The notes beneath the pieces are model-generated. The model was not told the origin of the DNA. It searched no databases and saw only the letters and a program-made list of their open reading frames with translations. Both the position numbers and the translations under genes were made by a program. From Tetragonia tetragonoides (lineage: Eukaryota; Streptophyta; Magnoliopsida; Caryophyllales; Aizoaceae): DNA of 64,000 nucleotides. Shown piece after piece: positions 8,590-57,448 of the stretch; within the stretch, counting starts at the first letter, position 1, and the number at the start of each line of letters is the position of its first letter. Location: positions 250,501 through 314,500 of the forward strand of contig CM076148.1 of NCBI GenBank assembly GCA_038025085.1, in the 5' to 3' direction.

Positions 8590-8604
8590 TTATTTATGGT
8601 GGTG

Positions 8605-8655
<51 letters not shown>

Positions 8656-9255
8656 AGGTTCAAAGCTGGTAACAGAAGAAGAAGCAGGTGCAGAAGGCTG
8701 CTGGTGATGAGAAGGTCCAGTTGTATCAGATCCTGGGGCACCACCAGTAGAAGCAGCTTCCTTCAAGTAGCCATTCACAGATGAGGCGCCAGCGGGTGGA
8801 CCACCATAGTAGGCCGCATGAGGATGATGATGATGATGATGTGGATGTGGATGTGGAGGGCCAATGTGAAAGACAGGCCCATAGGCGGCAGCATACTGAT
8901 CCATGGCGGCCCTGCTCATCTTAAGGAGGGGTTCACAAGTGCAGATGGAGCCACGATCACCCTCAAGCTCCCTGTAGCGATGGAGGTAAAGCGTAAGGAG
9001 CTCAATGTAGTCGTCAAAACCGAGTTTGCTCATAGCCCAAAGCACATCCTCAGCGGTTATTGTCTTGCGCTGCTCCCTCTGGCACCTCTCATTTGCTTCA
9101 CCAGTTATGAAGCTAATGTACTCTGAAACGCACTCCTGCATACATACATACATTTGCATGCAATAGTAGTAATTAATTGCCATCATTATTTTTGCATGAT
9201 CAACATGTATATATGTTACATAATGAATAATGTAACATGATGCTGTATGAAATAG

Positions 9256-22849: not shown

Positions 22850-24270
22850 TCAGTGTTTTACCCCTATTTCATTGTGCAGCGCATCTTCATCAGTTCCAGA
22901 ATTAGGTTTTGGGATAGTAATGAGATGATTTCTGTAGAGGGTTTCAAGCTCCTGGAAGTAGGGGCATGACTTGACATTATCTAAACGTTTCTTGCCATTC
23001 TCTGTGGCCTTTTTGAAATACTTGTTAATGTTCTCCCACTTCTCTTTGCATTTCTTTGCATTGCGAATGTATCCCATGTTAGCCATTGCAGCAGAAATTT
23101 CTTCCCAAACAGGAGCTTTTGGGGCGAGATTACGAAACTTGTGATCAAGAGCAGTGCGGAGGGTGATGAGAGCTTGCACCTCAGATGTGGGCCACCTCTT
23201 ATTGTTAGGATCATCAAAATTGCAGGGGTCCCCCTGGAAGTGGGGTTGTTGAGGGCGCAAGGGATGGTCTCCATGGGCATGGGCGAGAGTATTCTGGATC
23301 AAGGAAATGAGAGCGAGACTACGAGCTGCTTCCTGGGAGCGAATATCGTGGTCCCGTTTAGTTCGGTCGAGCTCCTGGCGCCTCCAAGCTTCTTCTCTAA
23401 TAATACGTTCCCTCTCCTTCCTCTCAATGGTCTCCATTAATTGATGGTGCATTTGCTCCTGCTTGTGGGTGACTTGAGCCATCAAAGTTTGGAGGAAGGA
23501 TTCAAGCTTCTTCCTTTTCTTGGTTTTAGGCTTGGCAGTAGTGATAGAAGGAGCAGGAGCATTATGATGGGCCTTGTGTACAGCTGAATCATCACTGGCA
23601 TCTGAAGAAGAGGAACTGAAACAGTTGCAGACAAGTAAATACTCCTACTTTGTTGAAAAGAGAAACTGATATATTGGTAATAGTGGTATTTGTATATGGG
23701 GGACTGGGGTTGTTATTGTTTGCAGTCTGTGTGGGTGCAAAAGGAAACAAAAGAAGACAAGTTTTGTAAGGATTGGATTGGATTGGGAAGGGAAATGGAA
23801 ATGGAAATGGTAAAGGAAAAGAATAAAGGTGATGGGTAAAGCTTGAGTTGAACATTAACCGTCCCCAATCCATTTTTACTTTGTGGTGGTTCGTTCCTCC
23901 ACTCAGAAGAACAAGAACATAAGCAGTTTCCATTGAAATGACTTTTGGCATTTTTATAGTAGGAGTATAATTTAGAGGCCAAGTGAGGAAGCATAAGAAA
24001 TGAGAAACAAAACGGCAAAGAAGACAATTACGGAGTAGTGGTAATAGCACAATTTTACAGATTCAACATTAAGATATTTACTCCATGGCATGCTATTAGT
24101 ATTTACCAAGAAGATTAAATTCAAGATTACTACAGAGTACTACTATACTATAGCTCTGGGTTGTTTAATCAAGAAGAGAAGAAGTAAAAGTAGTAATTTG
24201 TATGATACAGAGAGAGACAGTAAGTAAGTTGTACAAGTAGAAATACTATAATTGAAGAGGGGGGGGGGGG

Positions 24271-33847: not shown

Positions 33848-34136
33848 GTGGATTGCTATTTACCGCCTAAAATTACTACCTACCGCCTCTATAAATTACC
33901 CAATTGCCCTTCACTCATCCTCACTCATACTCATCCTCACTCAAAGCAAAACCACCACCACCACCACTCACCACCACTCGAAAAACCACTACCACCACCA
34001 CCACCACCACTCACCACCACTCGAAAAACCACTCACCACCACTCAAACTCATCCTCACTCAAAGCAAAACCACCACTCACCACCACCACTCACGGCAAAA
34101 CCACCACCACTCACGGCAAAACCACCACCATTCGAA

Positions 34137-34168
34137 ATGTCAGGGGCTAGCGGCAGCGGCAGAGGCGG
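34137..34168 (+). other. Possible short first exon of the PMD gene
   Basis: An ATG just inside the left terminal repeat opens a 32-nt frame (MSGASGSGRG) ending at a possible GTGACG donor. A matching arrangement exists at the right end, where the transposase gene begins with a short exon (39904-39863). A further frame at 34760-34893 starts GGAGKSMLRLFSGSGPR, in phase with this exon, but it runs one base out of phase with the main PMD frame, so the join is unproven. Confidence 0.4.
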
Positions 34169-34382
34169 GTGACGAGGACGGAGGCGGCGTGGGGGTATAC
34201 ATTCGAATTTTTTTTGCTTTATTTACTCTAATTTGCTTTGATTTTTACGAAATGTGTTGATATAGGAGTGTTTTTATTCGCGGTTTATAGACAATTGAAT
34301 TGAATTTGTGTTGTTTGAAGTTGTGTTGATTGATTTGTGAATTTTCGAGTTCGTCGGAGTAGAGTCGGGCGTCTGAAATAGA

Positions 34383-34540
34383 CGACTCACCCATGGGTGA
34401 GTCGCCTGTCGCAGACGACTCACCCATGGGTGAGTCGAGATCGGCAGACGCCTCACCTATGGGTGAGGCGCCAGTCGTAGACGACTCACCCATGGGTGAG
34501 TCGAGATCGACAGACGCCTCACCCATGGGTGAGGCGTCTG
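34383..34540. repeat. Left array of 33-bp-spaced CCATGG palindromes
   Basis: Five palindromes centred at 34393, 34426, 34459, 34492 and 34525, exactly 33 bp apart. Half-sites are CGACTCACCC or CGCCTCACC(C/T) meeting at CCATGG (CTATGG in the third). Four are perfect over 22 bp or more, and the last is perfect over 30 bp. The spacer carries GCAGA or GAGATCGRCAGA. The array lies between the left terminal repeat and the PMD coding region. Confidence 0.95.
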
Positions 34541-34565
34541 TAGCAGACGCCCGAGGCAAAAAAAA

Positions 34566-34583
34566 ATAATAATATTATTATTA

Positions 34584-34628
<45 letters not shown>

Positions 34629-34700
34629 TATTGTTATTATTATTAATATTATTATTGTTATTATTATTTGTTATTACAATTATTATTAGTTGTCAATTAT
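34566..34700. repeat. ATT-rich microsatellite region
   Basis: Interrupted (TTA)n over about 130 bp, between the palindrome array and the PMD coding exon. Confidence 0.85.
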
Positions 34701-34893
34701 TATTTTAATTGTTTATTACTGATTATTGTTTAATTAATTAAAAATGTGAAATGATAGAGGGGAGGAGCCGGTAAATCGATGCTGAGGTTATTCAGTGGTT
34801 CAGGACCGCGTCACACGAGGACGCGCGGGATTGATGCCTCTGAACGGAGACAAAGAGTGGCAGTTCGGATGAGGGAGATGACTGCTGAGCAAC

Positions 34894-36647
34894 ATGGACG
34901 ATGATCAGATTGACGTCGAATCATCCTCAGATTGGCGCGTGGTGAAGGGCAGAGGCGGTAGGTTTGTTAGTACTGGGTCGTCCAGTACTAGCAAACGATC
35001 TAGAGCGGAGGACGACACTACGTGGCTTGTTACAGGGGCTGTGCCCGGTGGGCCGGCGGATGATAGCGTCATACCGAGCTTCCTGGGCCACGTAGCGTCT
35101 CGTATGTGGAAGGGAGAGATGAGGGGTCTCTTGAAGTGTCAGAACCGATTCAGTGTCTATCAGCGGCTGAGTGAGTGGCGAGCGCAGAAGGCGCCCGAGG
35201 TGAGGGCCCAGATCCAGGGGACTGGGTTATCACACCTGACAGACATTATGTTCAGACATATTGACTTCCCCCTGATATCTGCATTCGTTGAAAGGTGGCA
35301 GCCGGATACGAACTCGTTCCACATGCCGTTCGGAGAGATGACGATCATGTTGCACGATGTATGGCATATTCTTCGGATTCCTGTAGAGGGACAGCTCGTT
35401 TCTAGTGAGGGACGGGATGGGCAGCTGCAGGCGACGGCCATGGAGGTTCTCGGGGTCACCCGAGATGAACTGATGTTTAGCTACTGGCAGGGCGGTGGGG
35501 TCCTCACGGAGTCAATTTTTGACCTTTGCCGAGTGGATGACCGAATGGAGGACATCCAGGCGATAGCTTGGATGTGGTTACTTATTGGATCCACCTTGTT
35601 TGTCGACAAGAGTGGTAACCGTATTAGACCCTCCTGTGTGATGGAGGTGAGGGACGGTGTCGGAACGGCGCATGAGTTCTCTTGGGGATCTGCTGTCCTC
35701 GCCTTCCTATATCGTCAGCTCGGTATAGCTAGTCGGGGGGATTCTCAGGGCATCTGCGGATGCCTAAATCTCCTCCAGGCATGGATATACGAGTACTTTC
35801 CCTGCTTCCGACCTCATCGGGAGCGGATGGTTGTCGGGGACGGCGAGACTCCCCTTGCGTGCGTATGGAGTGCCCAAGCTGAGGGCAAGGACGTGGGTCG
35901 ACTGTGCTCCTTACGTAGACGCTTGGATCAGCTGCGAGCGTCAGAGGTACGTCATGCAGTTATCGGTGTTCATTATTTATTTCGTCGTTTGCTATGTTTT
36001 TTTTACTTCACCGTAGCTTGAACATTTCTACGTAGGTGGTGTGGCTGCCGTACGGTTCTGACCCGATTGCATCTGTACCGAGGACTGTATTCATGGGGTG
36101 GCTACGGTATTGGGATATTATCGAACCGTACATGCCTGGTCGTTGTTTACGACAAATCGGGTACGTACAGAGTATCCCTTTCCCGATCACTAGGCCAGAG
36201 AAAGCGATCAGGTCATGGAGCAGTCGTTCGTACAAGGTTGTCTACCCCGTACGAGTATCATCTGATGCCTGGCGTATGTTCCCGGGATGTTACATTCTTG
36301 GTCTCCATGGGTTTCAGGCATCCACGTCAGATCCCACAGCATGTACGGATGACTACCTCGCATGGTACTACCGTCACTCCCACCCTCTGCTGATACGTGA
36401 CGATGCAGCACCTGTTTCTGTGATTCCTCCACGATCCAACAGCGATTATGTAAGTGATTAACTAAAATATATATTTTTTTACGTATTACATATCTCTGAA
36501 CTCACACTCATTGTTACTTTTTTGCAGTGGGTGAATCGTCTAGCCGTCGCATTTGAGTCTTTCATTACTTTGCTTCCTCCGGAGCAAGCGGAAGGTCCTC
36601 GATCGGTTATGGAGGAGTATATGAGAGATTGGCGGGCTGCCAAATGA
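34894..36647 (+). CDS. Plant mobile domain (PMD) protein, MULE-borne
   Basis: Exons 34894-35946, 36036-36449 and 36528-36647 are in phase and give about 528 aa. Family motifs in order: FRHIDFPLISAFVERWQPDT, TFH-like SFHMPFGEMTIMLHDVWHIL, IPVEG, AWMWLLIGSTLFVDKSGN, SWGSAVLAFLYRQL, LLQAWIYEYFPCFRP, VVWLPYGSD, GYVQSIPFPIT. This is the aminotransferase-like plant mobile domain (PF10536) found in MAIN/MAIL1 and in many transposon genes, often annotated as PP7 long-form homologue. There is no phosphatase domain. Host MAIN-type proteins act in transcription and silencing; transposon copies have unknown roles, perhaps in evading silencing. The frame is intact, but the N-terminus is uncertain, because a related frame upstream (34760-34893) is shifted by one base. 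Confidence 0.85.
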
Positions 36648-36877
36648 TGTATTGACCCTAGATGAATTTGTTATATATTTGTATAAGAGTTTTATTGTTA
36701 TTTATTTGTGTTATTGTAATTTGTTGTTTCTTATTTACCTTTTTTGTTTTATTGTAATTTGTTGTTTTATTTACCTCCAATAATCACGAAAAAATATAAC
36801 ATGCAAAATGTAACAATCACACAAAAATGTGACAATGATATAAGTAGAAAAATATAACAATCACGCAAAACATTCAA

Positions 36878-37796
36878 TTACGTCGACCTCGCTAAACGAT
36901 CCCAATGTGCTCTTCGCCTAACATACATTTGCTCCCAACCAGCGACACTATCAGAACGGGAAGTAAACCATGCTGCGCATATCGGAGGAACAGGGAAATC
37001 TGAGGCTAAATTCAGACGGATATAATGCATGTACGAATCACCTAAATGACCTATGACAATTTTCCTACTTGGACGTGTAGCAGTCGAAGGTGCTTGCAAC
37101 GGTAGCACTGTGTAACAAGAATATAACCCCCTTCCGCTGCCGTATCCGAATAACATAATCGCTGCATTGAAGAGGTTGGCAATCGGGAACAAATCCTCAA
37201 GTACTATCATCCAGTGATCATCGTTACACGCACCTCCGTCCCACATAATACGGCGGTAACCAGCGTCGACCCTGTCAACGTATATGTTTTCGTACAATGC
37301 TCGGTTAGCTAAGAGTTCGTTTGCAATGCAAACTCTCGTCAATCGCCATTGCTCTTGGTCTCCGAAAACGTAGTCCGCAATGACACGGAAACCGCAATTA
37401 CCATCCCCAAGCACATCGAGATATCCTTCAATGAAAGGTATGATGATTCCCGGAATTTTGTTAACATGATAAAATTCAGTGAGATCTATTCCGTGTCCAG
37501 CTGCAAGACAATATAATAGAAAGTCATTAATAGTACTTATCAAAAAGTAATTAACAACATTATGTACATGTTAATAAATTATGGGTTTTCATACCAGTAC
37601 TCCGCACGACGTTACTCGATGAGGATGAGGTACGACCATGCCCGCGGCTCGAACTGGATGACCTAGGGCGACCACGACCCCTCTGGGAGTACTCCCATGA
37701 ACTAGGATCACGTCTGGTAGAGGAACTCCCTCTCGGTCGACCTCTGACTGTCGTGTTCGCTTCCGGCTCGACGTAACTCGCTTCCTCAGGATGAAG
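36878..37796 (-). pseudogene. C-terminal linker and OTU protease domain of the MULE transposase gene, beyond an in-frame stop
   Basis: Directly after the TAG that ends the transposase frame, the same frame continues to 37595 as a Ser/Arg-rich linker (RGRPRGSSS, QRGRGRPRSSSSS). It then splices (donor at 37594, acceptor at 37501) to 37500-36878 in phase. That exon codes an OTU-type cysteine protease domain: catalytic Cys in LGDGNCGFRV, a middle segment IANELLANRALYENIYVD, and the likely catalytic His in MHYIRLN. OTU proteases remove ubiquitin. Fusion of MULE transposase with an OTU or ULP1-type protease is known in plant elements. If read alone, an internal ATG at 37543 could start a separate OTU protein. 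With the stop in place, the domain is cut off from the transposase. Confidence 0.82.
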
Positions 37797-39904
37797 CTAC
37801 TCATTCATAAGGACAGATATGTTGCGCACAACTGCCCGGTCGCTTGAGTTAACCTCGTCGACGAGAGAGTGAAAGTATCGATGGTCCTCAGATGGATGCT
37901 CAGTCATGTCAAGCGTAGCTATCTCCACTGCATCACTAATAACGAGTGTTCGCCAAAATTTGTGGACACTATTCAAGCTAATTGGCGTGCCCGTATCCGT
38001 GGCCGTTTTCAACTCACACGCACACGGGATCTGATGAGTGGATCTCAATACACAACCGCAACGAGCAAATACTTGGTGACTCAATTCTCTCATCCTCGTC
38101 AGCTCAGCCCATAATATTTCTAAGCAGTAATGGGAAACATACCCGGTCAGATAGTTGAATGGGAAACCCGAGTACATCACACTTCTTCGTCTTCTGCACT
38201 CTTCAAGTGTGTACTTGATCTCAGTTATTTGTGACTCGATTGACTTGTTGACCTTGTTCCAAACATTGTCCAAAGCTCCAGTTGAGGAGTTCAACCAGTG
38301 TTTTAGCGCGGCATGTGCACTCTCCACCCTGCAAGTCGTAGTGTTGCCAAGGTGTAGCACCTTATTCGTCCACGCAGCTACAAACATCTCTTTATATCTC
38401 AACCAGGTCTCCTCTACATAGGATATCACGTAAGGGTAATTCTTCCAACTATCCTTCATCAAACGCACTGCTCTATCGTACTCAGCTTCTGTGGAAGCTT
38501 CCATGATAAATTTCCACCTCCCGTTCTTGAACCTCTGCGCGGCTTCAACGACTTTGTTAATGTGCCATGTACAGAGCAAATGGGCACTCTCGGGAAATAT
38601 CTCTCTAATAGGTCTCATCAACCCTAGCTCACGATCGGTCAAAATTGCTGTTGGGTGTACATCATTTCCAATAAGCATCCTCAACTTATCTAAGACCCAC
38701 GCATAGCTTGCCTCAGTCTCATCCTTCATAATGGCATAAGCTATGAGGAAGTTCTTATTGCTTGGAGTCATCCCCACTATCTCAAGAAACGGCATCTTAT
38801 ACTTGTTTGTTTTGTACGTGGAATCTAAGCCAATAAACCAAGGAAAAGACCGAAGTAACTGAATTGATGTAGGGTGTGCCATGAACACGTGAGTTACCTC
38901 ATTAGTAGCTCGGTCGGCTCTTGTCCAATATACGTACTTATTCTCCACAGCTAAATGATGAAACTGACCAATGACATCTCTCTCTTCAAAATCAAGTTTC
39001 CTTATACGATCTCTGTAGTTGTACACATGCCGTCTAGTTGCATTGTCCTCGGGAAATTTTTCCTTAATAGCGGCGAAGATAGCACATGGCTTTGTTTGTG
39101 CCGAAGTCATGTCACGAACGAGTTGCTTTGACCCAGGACTAAGACCACTCATCTGATGATATCCCTCAGGAAACACAGCAAAGTCATGGTTGTGCGTACC
39201 CCTAATCCCAGGCAATGTGACAATCATCCAACTACTGGACCCATACACTTGCTGAGCTCTTAACTGGAACGTACATTTACAAGCCTTTGTTTTCGAATTC
39301 TTCCGAGCAGCAGTATCTAAGTCTCTTAATTCCCCTCTGTAGCGTTCACCTCGATTGCATCTTAACAATTTTACGCTTCCATTCTTCTTGTGTGACAAAA
39401 TTATCAACTCAAACCCGATAGTAAGGGCAATTTGTTTTGCCCAATTAATTGCATCTGTATCACTATCAAATAACTCATCAGTGACGAAATGCGTACTGTA
39501 ATCAACATCATCACCACCGAACCGCTCCAAAGGAACCTAACGAAAACAACGAAAACAATGTTAGCTTAATCTTAAATTCAAACGTCTATCAAAACCGACT
39601 GAACCAAGGGACAGGCGTCTGAAATTTACGCGTGAACCATGGAAGAAACGGAAATCACGGACGCCTCGGCCATGGTCGAGGCGTAAATCTCAGACGCCTC
39701 AACCATGGTATAGGCGTCCGTGATTGACGCCGAAACCATGATGAAGGCGTCCGTGATTCACGGCCCGTCCATGGTCTAGGCGGAAATTTCAGACGCCTCT
39801 TCCATGGACTGGTCGTAAAACACGGACGCCCGTGCAAAAAATATGCGCAAAAAAAAATTTACCTCCGCCACCGTCGACGACACTTCCTGGTCGCCGGCAG
39901 ACAT
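37797..39904 (-). CDS. MULE transposase
   Basis: A short first exon (39904-39863, MSAGDQEVSSTVAE) and a long exon (39536-37797) give 593 aa up to TAG at 37799-37797. An N-terminal FAR1-like zinc-binding region (KACKCTFQLRAQ, TLPGIRGTHNHD) precedes the MULE catalytic core: WFIGLDSTYKTNKYKMPFLE (first Asp), TAILTDRELGLMRPI (second Asp), LLCTWHINK, and a later Glu in CRVESAHAALKHWL. Mutator transposases bind the terminal repeats and cut and paste the element. The intron (39862-39537) contains the right palindrome array. The frame goes on past the TAG into an OTU domain, so this is probably a C-terminally shortened product. Confidence 0.88.
39637..39807. repeat. Right array of 33-bp-spaced CCATGG near-palindromes
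   Basis: Six centres at about 39639, 39672, 39705, 39738, 39771 and 39804, again exactly 33 bp apart. All carry CCATGG except the fourth (CCATGA). The arms (GACGCCT…AGGCGT) are more diverged than at the left end. The array lies in the first intron of the transposase gene. Confidence 0.92.
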
Positions 39905-40707
39905 CCGCGGCCGTTGCTTGAGTGAATGTTGATGAAGGTTGGGTATGAGAGTGGGTGGTAGAGAGGGAGAATTGGTGTGAGAGTTAGAGAGGAAGAGGAT
40001 GCTTGAGTGAATGAGTGAAAATGTGAAAAAGGGCAAAATTGGAATTTCTAGGGGCGGTAGGTAGTAATTTTGTGGCGGTAAATAGTAACACCCTTGAATA
40101 TTTACGTTATAAAATGGAGTATTCCAATCCAATCCAATCCATAACTTGAAATTGAAGTAGAAATTAATGAAATCCCCTTTGGCCATAACCTCCTACACCA
40201 CAGGCGGTCCTGCACTTTTTTATTTTCTGCCCCCGCACAATTTTCCACATCCTATGAAATGAAAATGAAACTGAAAATAAAACTGTAAATGAAATTGATA
40301 TGATCCCCACCCACCCATCAGCCATCACCAATCGCAACCTTCCAGTTCTTCTTCTTCTACTTCTGTTCTCTCTCTCTCTCCTCCCACCCCACATCCTCAC
40401 TCTCTCTCTCTCTCTAACCCTCTCTTGTTTTTGTTGATGGGGTGCATCTACTTTGTGCTACTACTATTTATTTGCTAATTTTATTTAATCTTTTTTCAGT
40501 TTACCCATCTTCTATTCACAAAATTTTGGCTTCTGGTCCTTCGATTTTTGTTCTGTATTGCTCAATCAGTTAGTTTTTAAATTAAAGAAAGACGGAAGGG
40601 GAAAGAGAATAGAAAAGATACAAACTTGGGGAATATTATAGGGGAATCTTGATTAGATTCTGGGTGTGGATAAATATAAATAGGGGGATAAAATCAATTG
40701 AAGAAAA

Positions 40708-44201: not shown

Positions 44202-47200
44202 TTAATGAACAGGGCAGCCTTTCACCGCAATTCCTGGGGCAGTGGGGCATGTCGCCAAGGGGCAATGATCAAAGTCTGTTCCCCACCATTTCAGGCTAAT
44301 GTTCTCATTCTGGAGGGCAAAGAAGATCAAAACTGCCATGAAAGCAGTTCCAGCATCTAAAGCTGCAGAAAGAACGTAGTTGTACTTCTTCCACCACTCT
44401 TTCCGGTACTTGAAAACGAAGTAGTTGAAGATGGTGCCTGTGACCAGCCAACTAGCAATGTTGGTTGGTCTTGCTGGTGGCATCCCTGCAAAGCCATACG
44501 ATATAACTGGAACGTTGATCAGTGGGATCCATTTGTTTTTGGGGTAAATCTTATGTAGTATCCACACAGGAACAGGTAATACTGCTCCAATAAGGAACAA
44601 CCACACCAAGTTTCTGTACAACCCTCCTGGTCCAAAGAGTCTGTTCGGTCCAATCAAGCCCCAAATAACGGAAGCATCGAATGTGACTTGGAATTTAGGG
44701 CATGTCCATGGACTGTTGGGATTCAGGGACTCCACATCGCATAGGTTATCAATTGTTGCCAACATCCACCATGCAACTGCAAGGTTGACTACACCAGAAA
44801 CCAATGTTCCTACGAGCTGCCAATCGATTGTAACAAGATAATTAGAGGGGAACATATTTAAACTTTTTTGAGCAATTATTAAACCTTGTCTATTTACTGT
44901 ACTGAATGTATGTTTGGATGGTGAGGTGAAGCTCTAGATACCTGAGCTGTGTACATACACCTGGGTGGAATTTTCATGTAGTGACCGAGTTTGAGATCAG
45001 ATAAGAATGACAGAGCATGAACGGTGCTGAGTCGGCCATACATCTTGAAGAGTAAATTGGCTATGGGTTTCCCAGGGTAGATATAGCCAAATATGAACTG
45101 TGCTATTATGTCATACCCAGGTTGCTGCACTCACACAACAATAATGGTCAGAACTTGGAACCAGAGATATTTCACAGACAAAGATAATCAGCTGGAATAC
45201 AATGACCCAATATATCTAATACCTGGTTCGTAGTCGCTTGGATGACACCAATTGGAAGAGTGACAATCCAAGCCAAAGCAAATGCCAAGAGTAAAGCCCA
45301 CCAAGGCAGCTGCACGTCATCCTTCCAAATGAAGGACATTAAGAGGGACAACACAACACTCAGTGCTAACAGGATAAGGAACCAATACTCAGGAACTGGA
45401 TTATATACGCTCATCAGCTTTGCATGGATATCCATCTTTACATTTTTCATCGCTGTCCTGCTCTGCCTCCAGATGTCCCTGTATATCACAGAACATATAA
45501 TTAGGAATCTCAACACATTATATAAAATCATGAACCAATATAATGTAATCAGATCGTGCACGTGATTAACGCTTACGAAAGCATACCTTCCATGGAATAG
45601 AGCAACATGGGTCAGTGTGGCTGTGAATCTAGCAAATCCAGACCCAATGGAGAGAGCAAAGAGAGGACTGAGATACAGTTTCCCATAACTATTATAAGCT
45701 GCAATGTTAAGATCACGCTGGGGGGTCAATATCTTGGTGGTATCATATTTCAGGCCATCAGCCCGAAAGAGCTGGTTGGAAAATATGGGGAATTTCCTGG
45801 CATCGAAGGTGTCGAACTTCCAGTAGCAAAGAGGGACAATTATGTAGATAAACATGATAAAGCCAACACCGACATTGACAATCGAAGACCAAGGTGCCAC
45901 TAAAGGGCTGCCATGGTACGCAGAGATGCCGGCCCAATCGAGAGTGAAGGCACCCAAACCAAGCCCATTGTAACCTGATCCAATCTGTTGTGCAGTGATG
46001 CTTCGAGGCCAGGCCCAGCACACCCAGGAGAAAAAGCTCAGAATTTGGAAGAGATAACCCGGGAGGGCGTAATAGGCAAAGCTTGCTGCGAAGAACAGGA
46101 GGAAGAACTGCATGCGGGTAAAACCCTTTGATTTTGGCTCCTTTTCATGGAGTGCTCTGCAGCATCAAAATATTCATAAATGTCAAAATTATTTCTGATT
46201 CGGAATCAGATATAGAAATAATAGTTTTGGGTTGACTAAAGAGATAAGGATAGTCTGTAGTGAATATACCCTTTGTAAAGCACTATTGATTGAAAACGAA
46301 TAAAAGAAAAGCAAAATATGGGGAATGCAATTTCCTTCATACATTTTGTTCGGTGTATTTTATCTACGCCAGGTTTGAGTACAAGGAATATTACGATCAC
46401 TGAGTAAGAAAATAGCATGACACAAATTCATCATTTTACTCAAGACTGGCATAAAGGTTGCGCCGAAAAAGACATGAAACAGATGGTCTTCACTTTAGAA
46501 AGGGTCTATTATTATTGTGTAGATTAAAGGAAGTTACTCATATAACTAATACCAATCTAGTTAAGCAAATGTAAGTGCCATGATTTGGCAGACACAAGAC
46601 AGTGTGTTTACTTTAGCAAGAGGGTTAGCCAATTGACTGGCATGTAGGAACATGCAGAGCAGCCTAAGATATGAAGTTTAGGTTCAGAGCAAATTAAATT
46701 TTGTTATAATAAAATTAAAGTTGGTTACTTTGTTGATGATGCTATACTAAGATTGAGTTTTTTTTTTTTATTATTAAAAGCAGCTGTTGCAAGTTCCAAG
46801 TCCTCAGTGAGTTTCAGAAATAGAATAACATAAGTTAAGTACATACTACTCGATGCCATGAACCAAGAAGGATTTTGACGATGCCCATACTCATGGTCAT
46901 GGGTTGAGCTTATGTGTATGCATAAAAACAATATGGTAAGATTGGCCCAAAATTGACAACAAGAGGCAAAAACACAAAAGAAGAATCAAAATACTGGTGT
47001 ACTAAAAATGGGGGTGGGGGAGAGAAAAGGACAAGTAAGTGAAAGGAGAAGAATGAAGGAACCTGAAAAAGGAGACTTGAGCAAGGTTAGCAGGCCACCA
47101 CATCTCAACAGGATCGACCAGATACCTTCGCAACATGCCAGCCCATCCATATCCCAGCACCTGATTTCATTTCCATTTTCATTTCAACCACATAATACAC

Positions 47201-48887
47201 CCGTTTTAATTAGAAAGAAAGAATCTCAACTCCTTTATCTCAACAGCATGAATGCCATTTGCCAAAGCAAACACCCATTTTTGGGAAACCACATTCTATC
47301 CTTCCATTTTTTAATTAAATGACAAATCATTTATCACTGCTACTCTACTCCTGCTTATTTCCTAACATTGAATTCTGACCCCCTTTTTTTTTTTTTTTTT
47401 GGTATGTTAACATGTACAGTAGTATTTTTAATCCTTATTTGACAGTAAACCAATACTGGGTTGAACAATCAAAGGATTAATGCCCTGCAGATGTGAATTT
47501 TACTGGTTTTTTTTTTTTTTTTTTTTACTCTAGGAAGTGAAAATTTGCCAACCCCCTTACCTTAATCTGAATGTCACCAAATAGAGCATCCAATCCCAGT
47601 TAACAAGCTAAGAACCTCATTTATTTATATTTTTTTGTTGATAATTTTAGAAACCCCCCATTTATTTAGGCAACATCTTTCACATTGTAACTATTATGGT
47701 TATTTAATTTTAAGAGATATATAGAATTAAATCACAAAAAAAAAACAAGAAGGTCCATTTATTATGTTAGTAATAGTGAATCAAGTGTTAAGAGATTTTC
47801 AGAAGATAAAGGGGAGAGAAAATTCAAAGTAGACGATGCAGGGTGGGTGGGTGGGTTCCTTCTTCCTTCTTCCTTCTTCCTTCTTCCTTGCAAGTATGGA
47901 CAAACAAGGAAAGACTTTTGACATGCAAAGCCAAAATCAATAATTATACTTTCACACTCTCTACACTACACATATACTCTATCAGTAGACATTATTTGAC
48001 ACCAAAACAAAACCAACAATTCAATCGTTATCGACCCCACCTCAAGCAACGGGATCATCCACAGATGAGAGATGACACTAGACATCAGTAGACATTAAAG
48101 ACATTTGACAGGTGATAATGTCGTCTTAACTTAAGTCATGACAATAATCATGTATGTATGTATGTATGTATCATGTATGTATGTATACCAGATGGAAGAA
48201 GTGCAAGTTTTGGTTGTTTCCTAACTTCCAAATTTGAGGTCAATTTATCTCTTTCCCATTTTCTAAATTCAAATTCAAATTAAATGCACTCATCATGTCA
48301 TCGCTTCTGGTACTGATACTATCAGAGAAATTAAATCAAGAGTGATATTATGGAGAATTGTGAAATTAATTACATACCTGTGTTGTCAATACTATGAAAA
48401 CAGCGCATAGGAATCCAAGTGACTGTTTATAGTAGGCCTTCATCACAGCTATGGCTCCAATCGAGTACGCGTCACCCCCACCATATGACACCCCACAATT
48501 CGCAAATATCGATATTATCACATGTTCTTTTATATTGAATGGCCCTGGATTCAGACTAAATTCCGACCCGAATACACTGTAATTCCGGGTGGGCAATATC
48601 CGAGCCAATAACTTGCCGATTGGAAGCACCGCTATCTGCATGAGGATGGAGGATATGGTTAACGGCTGCGTCCGAAATGCGAAGAAAGTGTTTAGGAATA
48701 TCAGCACAATACACGAACCCAGGCCCAAAAACCAGGCCCGAAACGTCAACACAGGCATGTTCGGGTCGTCGGTCTCCGGCACAACCAGCGCCACCTCTTC
48801 CACCGGACATCTTTCTCTCTCCTCCTCTCCCGCTTCCACCTTACTACTACTCTCACTCTGCCCTTTCTCTCCCACCTTGCTCCCCAT
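44202..48887 (-). CDS. Oligopeptide transporter (OPT family)
   Basis: Six exons in minus order, 48887-48378, 47160-47063, 46156-45587, 45478-45223, 45124-44942 and 44816-44202, in phase, about 743 aa. Family hallmarks are present: NPG at residues 113-115 ([12 protein letters not shown]) and KIPPR at 529-533 ([11 protein letters not shown]). There are many hydrophobic segments, the repeated [19 protein letters not shown] region, and the C-terminus [13 protein letters not shown] proteins of this clade are plasma-membrane proton-coupled carriers of peptides, glutathione or metal-ligand complexes; the substrate cannot be told from sequence alone. The N-terminus is acidic and hydrophilic. The large second intron (47161-48377) contains CTTC and TATG tetranucleotide runs. 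No disruption seen. Confidence 0.93.
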
Positions 48888-53437: not shown

Positions 53438-56400
53438 CTACATGGGGGGCTCGACCAAGCCCGCAATCTTTCTACAAACAAGAAGTTTCTCCTTAGGCAA
53501 GGCCTTCGTCAACATGTCCGATCCGTTGAGATCGGTGTGAATCTTCACAAGCTCAAATGACTTGTCTTCTACCGCTTCTCGAATCCAATGATACCTCCTC
53601 CGTATGTGTTTGGTTCGGGAATGGTAGGCTGCATTCTTGGCAAGGTGGATGGCACTTTGACTATCACAATAAAGAGGGTACTTGTCTTGTTTCAAACCCA
53701 ACTCCTCTAGAAAATCTCTCATCCAAATAAACTCCTTGCCAGCTTCAACCGCTGCCATATACTCAGATTCTGTGGTAGACAGAGCAACACACTTTTGCAA
53801 TTTTGATTGCCATGAAACAGCTCCCCCTGCAATTGTCATCAAGTATCCGGAGGTAGACTTACTAGCATCAATATCACCTGACAAATCAGCATCTGTGTAG
53901 CCATCTAACACAGGTTGTCCGGGACCAAAGCATAAACACACTCTAGAAGTACCTCTGAGATACCGCATGATCCACTTTACTGCTGCCCAATGCTCCTTAC
54001 CAGGATTAGACATGAACCTGCTAACAACCCCAATGGCATGTGCAATGTCTGGCCTAGTGCATACCATGGCATACATCAAACTCCCCACGGCGGATGCATA
54101 AGGCACCGTCATCATCTCTTTCTTGTCATTCTCACTTGTAGGACACTGGCTGGAGCTTAGCTTCATGTGACCTGCAAGTGGCGAGCTCACGGGTTTAGCT
54201 TTGTCCATCTTGAACCTCTCTAGCAGCTTCTGGATGTAACTCTCTTGTGATAGCCATATCTTCTTGTTCTTCCTATCACGAGAGATACGCATGCCCAAAA
54301 TTTGCTTTGCAGGGCCAAGGTCCTTCATTGCAAAGGACTTGCTCAAGGCACTCTTCAGGTTGGCAATCTTCTCCTTATCCTGTCCAACAATCAACATGTC
54401 ATCCACATAAAGTAAGAGAATGAGAAAATCACCTCCGGCGTAATGCTTCACAAACACACATGAATCTGCATGTGTCTTGTGGAAACTGTGGTCTTTCATG
54501 AAAGACTCAAACTTCTTGTACCATTGTCGAGGTGCTTGTTTCAAGCCATATAAACTCTTTTTCAAACGGCATACAAGCTTCTCACTTCCCTTCTCTTGGA
54601 AACCTTCTGGTTGCTCCATGTAGATTTCCTCCTCTAAGTCACCATGGAGGAAAGCAGTCTTCACATCAAGTTGTTCCAACTCCAAATCCATGCTAGCAGC
54701 TAAGCCAAGAACAACTCTAACAGAAGACATCTTTACAACTGGAGAGAAAATCTCTTCAAAGTCTATGCCTTTCTTTTGACCTGAGCCTTTCACCACCAAA
54801 CGTGCCTTGTACCTAGGTGGTGAACCATCTTCTCCAGTTTTCAGTCTGTACACCCATTTGTTCTTGAGTGCTCTCTTGCCCTTAGATAACTCCACTAAGT
54901 CATATGTGTGGTTCTCATGCAAGGATTTCATCTCATCTTGCATGGAATTATACCACTCCTTGCAGTGCTCATGTGACATAGCCTCCTCATAGCTTTCAGG
55001 TTCTCCCCCGTCGGTCATCAACACATACTCATCTGCTGGATATTTAGAGGTAGGCTGTCTCTCTCTGGTGGATCTTCTCAACTGTGGTTCTGGTTGTACA
55101 TGGGGTTCTTCTTCATGTGTATGATCTGGTGGTGGCTGAACATCATCACCATCATCACTGTTATGATCATCATTGCCATCTTCCTGTTGTTCTCCCCCTT
55201 GAACTCTAGGAGTTACTTCAGGAAATATTGGATCTGAGTTGGCGCTGTCACTAGGAGAAGGCTCTGGTTGTTTCTTCTTCTCACAATCTGCAAAGGTTTT
55301 GTCTTCAAAGAACACTACATCTCTGCTTCTAATCACTTTCCTGCTAACTGGATTCCACAATCTGTACCCAAACTCATCCTCTGAGTACCCTAGGAAGATG
55401 CATGGCTTTGTCTTGCTATCAAGCTTGGACCTCTCATCTCTGGGAATATGAACATATGCAAGGCACCCAAAGACTCTCAGGTGGCTGAATGATACCTCTT
55501 TACCAGTCCATACTCTCTGCGGAACATCTCCATTAAGAGGAACTGAAGGTGACCGGTTGATGAGGTACACTGCTGTAAACATTGCCTCGGCCCAAAAAAT
55601 CCTAGGCAGCTTCGCATGAGAGAGCATACATCGAATTCTTTCTTCAATTGTTCTGTTCATTCTCTCTGCAAGTCCATTCAGCTGAGGTGTCTTGGGAACT
55701 GTCTTCTCAAGCCTGATGCCCTGTACTTTGCAATACTCTTCAAATGGACCCCTGTACTCTCCACCATTGTCAGCTCTAACACACTTGAGCTTCCGGCCTG
55801 TTTCTCTCTCAACTCTGGCCTGGAACTGCTTGAAAAACTGTAGTACCTGGTCTTTGGTTTTCAACACAAAAGCCCACAGTTTTCTAGAATAATCATCAAT
55901 AAAAGTAACAAAATAAAGTGCACCGCTATGTGACTTAGTATCCATAGAACATACATCAGTGTGAACAAGATCTAATGCATGTTTTCTTCTAGATGGGGGA
56001 CGAGTATGAAATGCTGCCCTATGTTGTTTTCCAGCTAAACAATCAACACAGGGTTTCAAGGACATACCTTGAACATCAGGAAGGAGTTGCTTCTTAGCAA
56101 GCATTTGCATACCTCTTTCACTCATGTGACCAAGTCTCTTGTGCCATAACTCGCTGGAGGAATCATCAACTGCGTGTACTTCTCCTTTGCACAACTTAGC
56201 TTGCATCACATACAAGGATCTCTGCTTGCTCCCACGAGCCACAATCAAACTTCCTTTGATAAGCTTGCACTTTCCACCACCAAAGTTGCTGGAGTAACCA
56301 GCATCATCGAGCAACCCAGGAGATATCAAATTCAGCCGAATGTCTGGAACATGTCGGACATCTCTCAACACCAAACTGCAACCTGTGGATGTCTCCAAAC

Positions 56401-57448
56401 ACACTGTACCCATGCCTACAATCTTGGATGAGCCATCATTCCCCATCTTTACATAGCCAAAGTCACCGCTGGTGTAAGATGAGAAGTAATCTTGGTGCGA
56501 GGTTAGATGAAACGAAGCACCCGTGTCAATCACCCAAGTACAATCATCACTATCTAGATTTAGGCAATGGTCACCAATAAAAAATAATTCATCACTTGTT
56601 GCAATTGCAGTGGTGTTGTTATCTTTCTCTTCTTGTTGTTGCCCGAATGTCTCACCCTTTTCTTTCCTTTCTCTGGACTTGTCTCTCTTCATTTTCCTGC
56701 AATGTTTTTGAATGTGGCCTGGCTTATCACAATAGTGGCAAATGATCTTACCCTTTGATTTTGATCTCCCCCTGGACTTGTCTCTATGCTGGGGATATCG
56801 AGTCTTACTTCTTCCCCTGCTTGATTCTTGTGTCACATTAGCCTCTGGTTGTGTGGAGGAACTCATTTCCTTCCTTCTAGTTTCTTCATTCAACAAACTA
56901 GCTTTGACAATTTCCATTGTCAGCGTGCCCTCTGGTGCGGAGTTGCTAAGTGATACAAATAGAGTGTCCCAACTTTCTGGCAATGAGCAAAGTAGTAGCA
57001 ATGCCTGCAGCTCATCATCTAAATTCATCTTCATTGCAGACAACTTGTTAATCAAACTTTGAAATTCATTCAAGTGAACTACTATGCTATCACCATCTTT
57101 ATATTCCAGTTTCACAAGTTTTCTAATCAATGACGCTTTACTCAAGGCATTCTTCCTTTCATACATGGTCTCAAGTTTCTTCCAAAGAGTATAAGCATTC
57201 GTGTCATTGGCAATATGTTGGAGGACACTCATATCAACAAATTGTCTAATTGTTCCAACGGCTTTACGGTTCAATATTTTCCACTCACTTTCAACAACAC
57301 CAGTTGGTATGGTTGCATTTAAAATTGGTTCATACAAATCCTTCACATAAAGGATATCCTCCATTTTAGTTTTCCACACGGAGTAATTTCCAGAATTCAA
57401 ACTAATCATTCCGTGCACACCAGATTTTTCATCCATCTTTAACAACAC
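53438..57448 (-). CDS. Copia gag-pol polyprotein
   Basis: A single uninterrupted frame of 1336 aa. In order: gag (UBN2/Retrotran_gag_2-like start), a CCHC zinc knuckle (CHYCDKPGHIQKHC), aspartic protease (WVIDTGASFHLT), the integrase zinc-binding part (LWHKRLGHMSERGM … CVDCLAGK) and core (HTDVCSMDT, RADNGGEYRG), reverse transcriptase (VKTAFLHGDLEEEIYMEQPE, LLLYVDDMLIVG) and RNase H (SGYLMTIAGGAVSWQSKLQK, STTESEYMA). The order protease-integrase-RT-RNase H defines Ty1/copia; wording is closest to the TNT 1-94 type. All key catalytic motifs seem intact, so the copy may be autonomous. Confidence 0.97.
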   Translation of the reverse strand: MLLKMDEKSGVHGMISLNSGNYSVWKTKMEDILYVKDLYEPILNATIPTGVVESEWKILNRKAVGTIRQFVDMSVLQHIANDTNAYTLWKKLETMYERKNALSKASLIRKLVKLEYKDGDSIVVHLNEFQSLINKLSAMKMNLDDELQALLLLCSLPESWDTLFVSLSNSAPEGTLTMEIVKASLLNEETRRKEMSSSTQPEANVTQESSRGRSKTRYPQHRDKSRGRSKSKGKIICHYCDKPGHIQKHCRKMKRDKSRERKEKGETFGQQQEEKDNNTTAIATSDELFFIGDHCLNLDSDDCTWVIDTGASFHLTSHQDYFSSYTSGDFGYVKMGNDGSSKIVGMGTVCLETSTGCSLVLRDVRHVPDIRLNLISPGLLDDAGYSSNFGGGKCKLIKGSLIVARGSKQRSLYVMQAKLCKGEVHAVDDSSSELWHKRLGHMSERGMQMLAKKQLLPDVQGMSLKPCVDCLAGKQHRAAFHTRPPSRRKHALDLVHTDVCSMDTKSHSGALYFVTFIDDYSRKLWAFVLKTKDQVLQFFKQFQARVERETGRKLKCVRADNGGEYRGPFEEYCKVQGIRLEKTVPKTPQLNGLAERMNRTIEERIRCMLSHAKLPRIFWAEAMFTAVYLINRSPSVPLNGDVPQRVWTGKEVSFSHLRVFGCLAYVHIPRDERSKLDSKTKPCIFLGYSEDEFGYRLWNPVSRKVIRSRDVVFFEDKTFADCEKKKQPEPSPSDSANSDPIFPEVTPRVQGGEQQEDGNDDHNSDDGDDVQPPPDHTHEEEPHVQPEPQLRRSTRERQPTSKYPADEYVLMTDGGEPESYEEAMSHEHCKEWYNSMQDEMKSLHENHTYDLVELSKGKRALKNKWVYRLKTGEDGSPPRYKARLVVKGSGQKKGIDFEEIFSPVVKMSSVRVVLGLAASMDLELEQLDVKTAFLHGDLEEEIYMEQPEGFQEKGSEKLVCRLKKSLYGLKQAPRQWYKKFESFMKDHSFHKTHADSCVFVKHYAGGDFLILLLYVDDMLIVGQDKEKIANLKSALSKSFAMKDLGPAKQILGMRISRDRKNKKIWLSQESYIQKLLERFKMDKAKPVSSPLAGHMKLSSSQCPTSENDKKEMMTVPYASAVGSLMYAMVCTRPDIAHAIGVVSRFMSNPGKEHWAAVKWIMRYLRGTSRVCLCFGPGQPVLDGYTDADLSGDIDASKSTSGYLMTIAGGAVSWQSKLQKCVALSTTESEYMAAVEAGKEFIWMRDFLEELGLKQDKYPLYCDSQSAIHLAKNAAYHSRTKHIRRRYHWIREAVEDKSFELVKIHTDLNGSDMLTKALPKEKLLVCRKIAGLVEPPM

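What the first reader, a model, noticed from the sequence alone, without database searches (positions are those of the whole stretch)
34383..39807. Mirror-placed arrays of CCATGG palindromes with an exact 33-bp period at both ends of a MULE
The left array has five palindromes centred at 34393, 34426, 34459, 34492 and 34525. The right array has six centres at 39639, 39672, 39705, 39738, 39771 and 39804. Both step by exactly 33 bp. Each array lies just inside a terminal repeat, apparently in the first intron of the gene that starts at that end. Left units are nearly perfect palindromes of 22-30 bp, right units are degenerate in the arms but keep the CCATGG core and the phase. I know of no such described MULE feature. 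Possible roles: sites for a dimeric transposase on one face of the DNA (33 bp is close to three helical turns), an enhancer or insulator, or hairpins that attract or block small-RNA silencing. The period and the palindromes are seen; the roles are inference.
Basis: partly seen in the sequence, partly recalled or inferred. Interest (0 to 1): 0.78.

Follow-up and report, generated by a model that had tools for sequence, protein, structure and literature searches.

The report
Phased palindrome arrays in plant MULEs
A plant jumping-gene family and its miniature offspring carry rows of the same two-sided DNA motif spaced 33 bases apart near their ends, which looks like a docking array for a protein rather than an ordinary junk repeat, though no binding has been shown.

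Summary
In detail: both arrays are present in 33-bp register. The motif CGCCT-N3-CCATGG-N3-AGGCG (up to 3 mismatches) hits the 64-kb window 12 times, all in these arrays; 0.03 expected. The element is a 6.2-kb TIR-MULE with a PMD gene and a MULE transposase, in a 753-Mb plant genome. By gene model both arrays lie in first introns. Of 70 transposase-selected loci 69 have their own transposase-end array; of 20 left ends fetched 17 have a phased array; 8 of 8 TIR-selected loci have one. Genome-wide, three CCATGG at exactly 33/33 bp give 2107 (overlapping) matches, reversed control 0; any gap pair 16-44 gives 2883. Intervals between cores diverge to 55% mean identity, yet spacing and AGGCG half-sites stay. 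A 550-bp MITE (29 near-full copies among 40 scored) keeps TIRs, leader and one array. In recent copies positions 5-6 bp from each dyad carry far more shared variants than spacers or flanks (P < 4e-7). Best reading, inferred: a phased array of dyad protein-binding sites by which an element protein recognises its own copies, as VANC does in VANDALs. Which protein and which function are unproven. New variant of a known kind.

The parts
33848..40093 (.). whole MULE copy, 6246 bp; no TSD found for this copy, 8-bp TSD in relative L040
33854..33940 (+). left TIR (80% identical over 87 bp to the right one, ends approximate)
34137..34194 (+). PMD gene exon 1 (inferred); in-frame TGA in this copy, open in the other copies printed
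34383..34536 (.). left array: 22-bp dyad units starting at 34383, 34416, 34449, 34482, 34515 (five; fuller relatives have six, often alternating two types)
34894..35947 (+). PMD gene main exon, Plant mobile domain PF10536 (exon end inferred)
36036..36461 (+). PMD gene, following exon region (C-terminal part of PF10536, 29.5 bits, below the 34.9 cut-off on its own)
36878..37570 (-). region with a DGNCGFR motif that resembles OTU proteases (recalled; no Pfam hit)
37797..39536 (-). transposase exon 2, MULE domain PF10551; the frame ends at an in-frame stop where 670-codon frames of relatives go on
39537..39862 (-). transposase intron 1 (inferred), contains the right array
39596..39815 (.). right array: 22-bp dyad units starting at 39596 (CCAAGG core), 39629, 39662, 39695, 39728 (CCATGA), 39761, 39794
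39863..39904 (-). transposase exon 1 (42 nt, inferred)
40004..40093 (-). right TIR (inner end approximate)

Best explanation
Each array is a row of dyad-symmetric protein-binding sites, CGCCT-N3-CCATGG-N3-AGGCG, separated by 11 bp of free sequence so that centres recur every 33 bp. I infer that a dimeric protein made by the element (transposase, PMD protein, or both) loads on the array and so finds and marks its own family: it keeps the copy accessible against silencing and/or helps transposase assemble at the nearby TIR. Shown by sequence: motif, phase, place next to both ends, presence in full-length elements and in an amplified MITE, long-term constraint on half-sites and spacing, fast change of the N3 letters at the transposase end. 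Inferred: that a protein binds, which protein, and what binding does.
For: Exact 33/33 spacing of three CCATGG: 2107 forward matches, 0 for the reversed control; all gap pairs 16-44: 2883 against 133. 69 of 70 transposase-selected loci have their own right array; of 314 steps between consecutive exact cores in 70 distinct arrays, 288 are 33, 20 are 66 or 99, 6 are off phase. Left: 84 of 90 steps are 33 (counted from the listing). 8 of 8 TIR-selected loci have the array. 49 distinct intervals from 29 listed matches, mean pairwise identity 0.55: 0.32-0.41 bit at +-4 to 6, 0.81-2.00 bit at +-7 to 11 (not part of the search pattern), 0.50-0.69 bit at +-12 to 16. Left dyad kept in 73-100% of 106 units per pair at +-1 to 11, with a two-sided change at +-9 (A.T 87, C.G 16). 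A 550-bp MITE with an 8-bp TSD keeps TIRs, leader with exon-1 remnant and five units; 29 near-full-length copies, itself included, among 40 scored. Precedents: VANC21 sits on tandem motif arrays in introns, intergenic and terminal non-coding parts of VANDAL21 (PMC5735166, passages); the Galileo THAP domain binds tandem repeats in its long TIRs (PMC3688188, passages); anti-silencing use of captured PMD by MULEs was suggested (PMC5418596, passages).
Against: No binding, methylation, small-RNA or expression data. In recent copies the CCATGG core is not significantly more constrained than flanks (9 shared and 8 single against 86 and 100, P = 0.62), and left cores can be AA/TT. The MITEs and L128 were found with array-bearing queries, so derivatives without arrays would have been missed; the 8 TIR-selected loci are close relatives. 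The array is about 170 of the MITE's 550 bp and could be a passenger with the leader. Two of 20 fetched left ends show no unit. Six stretches upstream of other PMD genes have no phased array (0 of 6). The PMD main exon has no significant match among solved structures (best E 0.19), so DNA binding by PMD is unsupported here.
Confidence: 0.5

Rival explanations
1. Neutral minisatellite carried along: an old tandem repeat with 33-bp units persists because copies are young and unequal exchange keeps unit length.
For: Copies are young (exon 2 mean pairwise divergence 1.3% in 28 copies). Unit number varies by whole units; the window's left array has one unit fewer than the six-unit relatives. Units convert each other, some in inverted sense (three inverse pairs among 98 loops; several unit pairs match more than permuted).
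Against: Right-hand spacers differ between units while length stays 33; across subfamilies half-sites keep information that N3 and spacers lose; 2107 against 0; substitution excess confined to +-5,6.
Confidence: 0.22
2. A fold-back structure: cruciform DNA or a long hairpin in intron RNA that affects splicing, small-RNA production or transposition.
For: DNA folding z-scores -16.5 (left) and -11.4 (right). Within right units, pairing at +-4, 6, 8 and 9 exceeds permutation within units (0, 0, 0 and 2 of 1000), not at +-5 (420) or +-7 (998). RNA of 56 arrays is a little more stable than with N3 blocks permuted among copies (-144.5 against -143.1, 0 of 51 as low).
Against: Tandem dyads fold well by construction; the permutations ignore shared descent; +-5 and +-6 are paired only 0.38 and 0.19, so the fast letters break the stem.
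Confidence: 0.15
3. Host transcription-factor enhancer inside intron 1 of each gene.
For: Both arrays lie in 5-prime introns just inside the TIRs.
Against: The MITE family lacks both gene bodies and keeps the array, though it also keeps the leader and exon-1 remnant.
Confidence: 0.13

Closest known systems
VANDAL elements of Arabidopsis with VANC anti-silencing proteins
   Same: Tandem arrays of short motifs in non-coding parts of the element (introns, intergenic, termini) that diverge fast between relatives (PMC5735166 and PMC10398659, passages). That VANDALs are MULEs is recalled.
   Different: PMD gene; no search for a VANC protein was made; TIRs present; a 22-bp dyad at fixed 33-bp phase; the VANC21 motif YAGTATTAY does not occur inside the element (6 sites in the window, none between 33848 and 40093).
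Galileo and Foldback-like elements; Phantom; Tm1
   Same: Tandem repeats near the ends; in Galileo they hold extra transposase-binding sites; Foldback and Phantom are named there as untested (PMC3688188, passages). Tm1, a Mutator/Foldback family, was seen only in search listings.
   Different: Galileo has a P-element-type transposase; here MULE, and the arrays are phased dyads in introns inside the TIRs.
PMD-carrying plant MULEs
   Same: MULE transposase plus plant mobile domain; an anti-silencing role for captured PMD was suggested (PMC5418596, passages).
   Different: The passages describe PMD-C fused to MULE transposases in grasses and Amborella; here PMD is a separate gene, on the opposite strand to the transposase; no array is mentioned in the passages read.
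MULEs with multiple TIRs
   Same: Repeated terminal sequence in plant MULEs (PMC3310237, passages).
   Different: There whole long TIRs are duplicated, not short phased dyads.
SIRC cassettes of Arabidopsis
   Same: Short repeats with diverse spacers, linked to MITEs; part of the repeats hold small palindromes (PMC10342631, passages).
   Different: Defined as direct repeats; no fixed period in the passages read.

Membership tests
TIR-MULE | MULE transposase domain | tested here: met
   PF10551, E 5.2e-26
TIR-MULE | terminal inverted repeats | tested here: met
   80% over 87 bp
TIR-MULE | 8-11 bp target-site duplication | tested here: met
   8 bp in L040 and L129; none found at the window copy or L130, a T-rich 8-bp candidate at L131
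VANDAL/VANC system | motif arrays in non-coding parts of the element | tested here: met
VANDAL/VANC system | VANC21 motif YAGTATTAY in the element | tested here: not met
   no site inside 33848-40093; other VANCs have other motifs
VANDAL/VANC system | VANC protein | not tested
   no VANC sequence or profile was run; Pfam names PMD and MULE in the frames scanned
VANDAL/VANC system | loss of DNA methylation on protein binding | not testable with these tools
   no methylome
Galileo-type multi-site transposon ends | transposase binds the tandem repeats | not testable with these tools
   no binding assay
Galileo-type multi-site transposon ends | P-element-type transposase | tested here: not met
   Pfam finds MULE, an RNaseH-like SWIM-associated domain and a weak AFT match
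minisatellite of free period | period drifts between relatives | tested here: not met
   2107 exact of 2883; 288 of 314 right steps; 84 of 90 left steps

The most novel reading that the evidence does not exclude
The array is an evolving address code: core, half-sites and 33-bp phase form a scaffold read by the element's own protein, while the N3 letters at +-4 to 6 are under diversifying selection in the proliferating lineages, so that lineages escape a host recogniser or partition their own copies.
Probability: 0.2. Interest if true: 0.85.

Novelty: new variant of a known kind. Interest (0 to 1): 0.62.

Why it matters
How plant transposons recognise and protect their own copies is known in detail for few families. 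A compact array of near-fixed geometry, shared by a PMD-bearing MULE and its MITEs and giving about two thousand overlapping matches in one genome, can be tested directly by binding, methylation and small-RNA mapping. Comparing transmitted with single-copy variants also offers a way to look for selection on transposon cis elements within one genome.

Tried and rejected
Coding repeat: 33 bp is 11 codons and the left array is open in one plus-strand frame, but the right array has stops in gene sense, and by eye none of 13 relatives read has an 11-residue repeat. Unit shuffling as the source of the variable letters: 98 distinct loops in 52 arrays, none shared between unit positions, three inverse pairs. 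Mutational hotspot in resting copies: in 69 copies singletons at +-5,6 are 6 on 24 sites, against 28 on 63 spacer and 100 on 299 flank sites; in the smaller set of 28 copies they are 8 on 24 (0.33 per site), above exon 2 (0.107), intron flank (0.189) and spacer (0.157) and below the outer arms (0.403), so a mild hotspot is not excluded. Coevolving coding change: shared variants at codon positions 1/2/3 are 15/16/16 on 633 each in the transposase and 20/21/24 on 352/352/351 in PMD (that set holds three pairs of the same copy: L001/window, L005/L040, L006/L041). Old alleles moved by short conversion tracts remain possible.

Corrections and dropped rows: the array at L028 is its neighbour L027's, so may count it twice; one search repeats the main counts without it. 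For L032 onward uses a second copy nearby; its own array is seen. The 71 loci are 70 of the 75 transposase places scored (window copy included) plus L041, found by its left array. One search used 52 of 71 arrays; searches used 28 of 31 (L041, L028, L032 out); one search left out L041, L041 and L028. One search used 29 of 50 plus rows: 4 off-phase rows out, overlapping rows thinned. In one search the unit centre was one base off; one search corrects it; of 24 left ends L044 and L056 gave no unit and L051 was not counted in the pair table because its sense was not set. Ten searches of an open-access library listed no title or abstract start that describes such an array in a MULE; the listings were capped and this is no proof of absence.

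Full report
Observation. The two arrays are real and in phase. The motif CGCCT-N3-CCATGG-N3-AGGCG, written down from other loci of the genome, hits the 64-kb window 12 times with up to three mismatches, all in the two arrays (five left, seven right), against 0.03 expected.

The element. It spans 33848-40093, with TIRs 80% identical over 87 bp. The plus-strand gene encodes a plant mobile domain (PF10536), the minus-strand gene a MULE transposase (PF10551). A DGNCGFR motif follows the transposase and looks OTU-like, but no Pfam model scored it here or in four relatives, so that label rests on recall. This copy is decayed: a TGA in PMD exon 1 and a stop in the transposase frame where relatives run on. 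In 7 of 7 relatives printed the PMD frame runs on upstream, and transposase exon 1 joins exon 2 in frame, so both arrays fall in first introns; this is a gene model. Mercurialis, Euphorbia, Spinacia, Chenopodium, Corchorus and Orobanche hold relatives of both proteins; in Corchorus two of them have consecutive locus tags (CCACVL1_20265 and 20266).

The family. The window lies in an unnamed 753-Mb genome, a plant by its genes. A transposase search scored 75 of 2650 candidates, all 95% or more identical. I read the transposase end of 70 of these 75; 69 have their own array, L028 has none of its own in the DNA held. With L041 this gives 70 distinct arrays. Of 314 steps between consecutive exact cores, 288 are 33 bp, 20 are 66 or 99, six are off phase. 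Of 20 left ends fetched for such copies, 17 have four or more units, one has one, two have none; over all left ends read 84 of 90 steps are 33. Eight loci chosen by TIR sequence alone all had the array; they are 8 of the 40 listed, taken from those not already in the transposase set. Six stretches upstream of other PMD genes had no phased array.

Genome-wide phase. Three CCATGG with both gaps free between 16 and 44 bp give 2883 forward matches, the reversed pattern 133. With both gaps fixed at 27 bp (33-bp period) there are 2107, control 0, so one of 841 gap pairs accounts for 73%. These matches overlap: the 46 in-phase plus rows among the 50 listed fall into 19 loci. The four off-phase rows come from two other loci.

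Footprint across subfamilies. From 29 of those matches I took 49 distinct 27-base intervals, mean pairwise identity 0.55, minimum 0.19. Outward from the core, positions 4-6 carry 0.37, 0.41 and 0.32 bit, positions 7-11 (AGGCG) 1.30, 1.53, 0.81, 2.00 and 1.63 bit, positions 12-16 0.50-0.69 bit. Half-sites were not part of the search pattern; the core was, so this says nothing about the core. All listed matches lie in the first 6 Mb of one chromosome and are not independent. The left arrays are the same motif with N3 mostly CAC/GTG: 106 units from 21 copies keep the dyad at +-1 to +-11 in 73-100% per pair, with a two-sided change (A.T to C.G) at +-9 in 16 units.

Fast letters at the transposase end. 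In 52 six-unit arrays diversity is 0.27-0.37 at +-5 and +-6 against 0.033 outside the array. In 28 copies exon 2 differs by 1.3% while +-5,6 differ by 35%. Taking variants seen once as mostly post-insertion and shared ones as transmitted, 69 copies give 42 shared and 6 single at +-5,6; 16 and 28 in spacers; 86 and 100 in flanks (P = 3.7e-7 and 1.1e-7). The excess is symmetric about the dyad and peaks at 5 and 6 (22 and 20 shared; other offsets 1-9). Because single variants are not in clear excess there, change in the proliferating lineages, by selection or by conversion from an older pool, fits better than a hotspot in resting copies; the smaller set leaves room for a mild hotspot. The whole 5-prime end also has more shared variation than exon 2 (about 0.13-0.14 against 0.025 per site), so it has a deeper history. 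Copies are not independent; P values are indicative. Against my reading, the core is not significantly constrained in this set (P = 0.62).

Non-autonomous relatives. L041 is an internal deletion copy with both arrays. L128 has inverted ends of about 490 bp (89%), each with five units, around other sequence. L129 holds a 550-bp element with an 8-bp TSD, TIRs, leader with exon-1 remnant and five units; removing it and one TSD restores an open frame. A search with it scored 40 of 1789 candidates; 29, itself included, cover nearly all of it, the others at 88-95%. Of those I read only L131 besides L129; L130 is a related subtype. All were found with array-bearing queries, so they cannot show that arrays are required.

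Mechanism. Near-fixed phase with free spacers, two-sided half-sites and survival in a MITE without the gene bodies point to a cis array for a dimeric or oligomeric protein. I favour recognition of the DNA itself, by transposase or by an anti-silencing protein, over gene enhancement. VANC arrays in VANDALs (PMC5735166, PMC10398659; passages) and Galileo ends (PMC3688188; passages) are precedents. Ikeda et al. (PMC5418596; passages) suggested anti-silencing use of PMD by MULEs; for the host PMD proteins MAIN and MAIL1 a promoter motif enriched in down-regulated genes is reported, with recognition only suggested (PMC7156037; passages). None of this shows binding here.

Noticed in passing
G000 C9:42.07-42.32 Mb and C15:4.42-4.61 Mb: Two dense clusters of PMD-domain open frames, higher scoring than the MULE copies.
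   Followed up: no
right arrays of L011, L017, L024, L082: L011 folds into one long stem, L017 has units 3 and 5 as exact inverses in their variable part, L024 and L082 are the most stable per base: hints of inverted conversion inside arrays.
   Followed up: partly
L027/L028 (C6:10675752-10679909): Two transposase copies head to head 0.6 kb apart with one array between them.
   Followed up: partly
L128:500-1900: Sequence between two array-bearing ends without similarity to the window element, possibly captured.
   Followed up: no
window 53438-57448 (-): 1336-codon open frame that looks like a Copia-type polyprotein, by eye.
   Followed up: no
window 8590-9186, 22850-23485, 44202-48887 (-): Open frames resembling an NF-Y subunit, a trihelix factor and an oligopeptide transporter, by eye.
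   Followed up: no
L132:414-498: An array whose first step is 18 bp, a break of phase.
   Followed up: no
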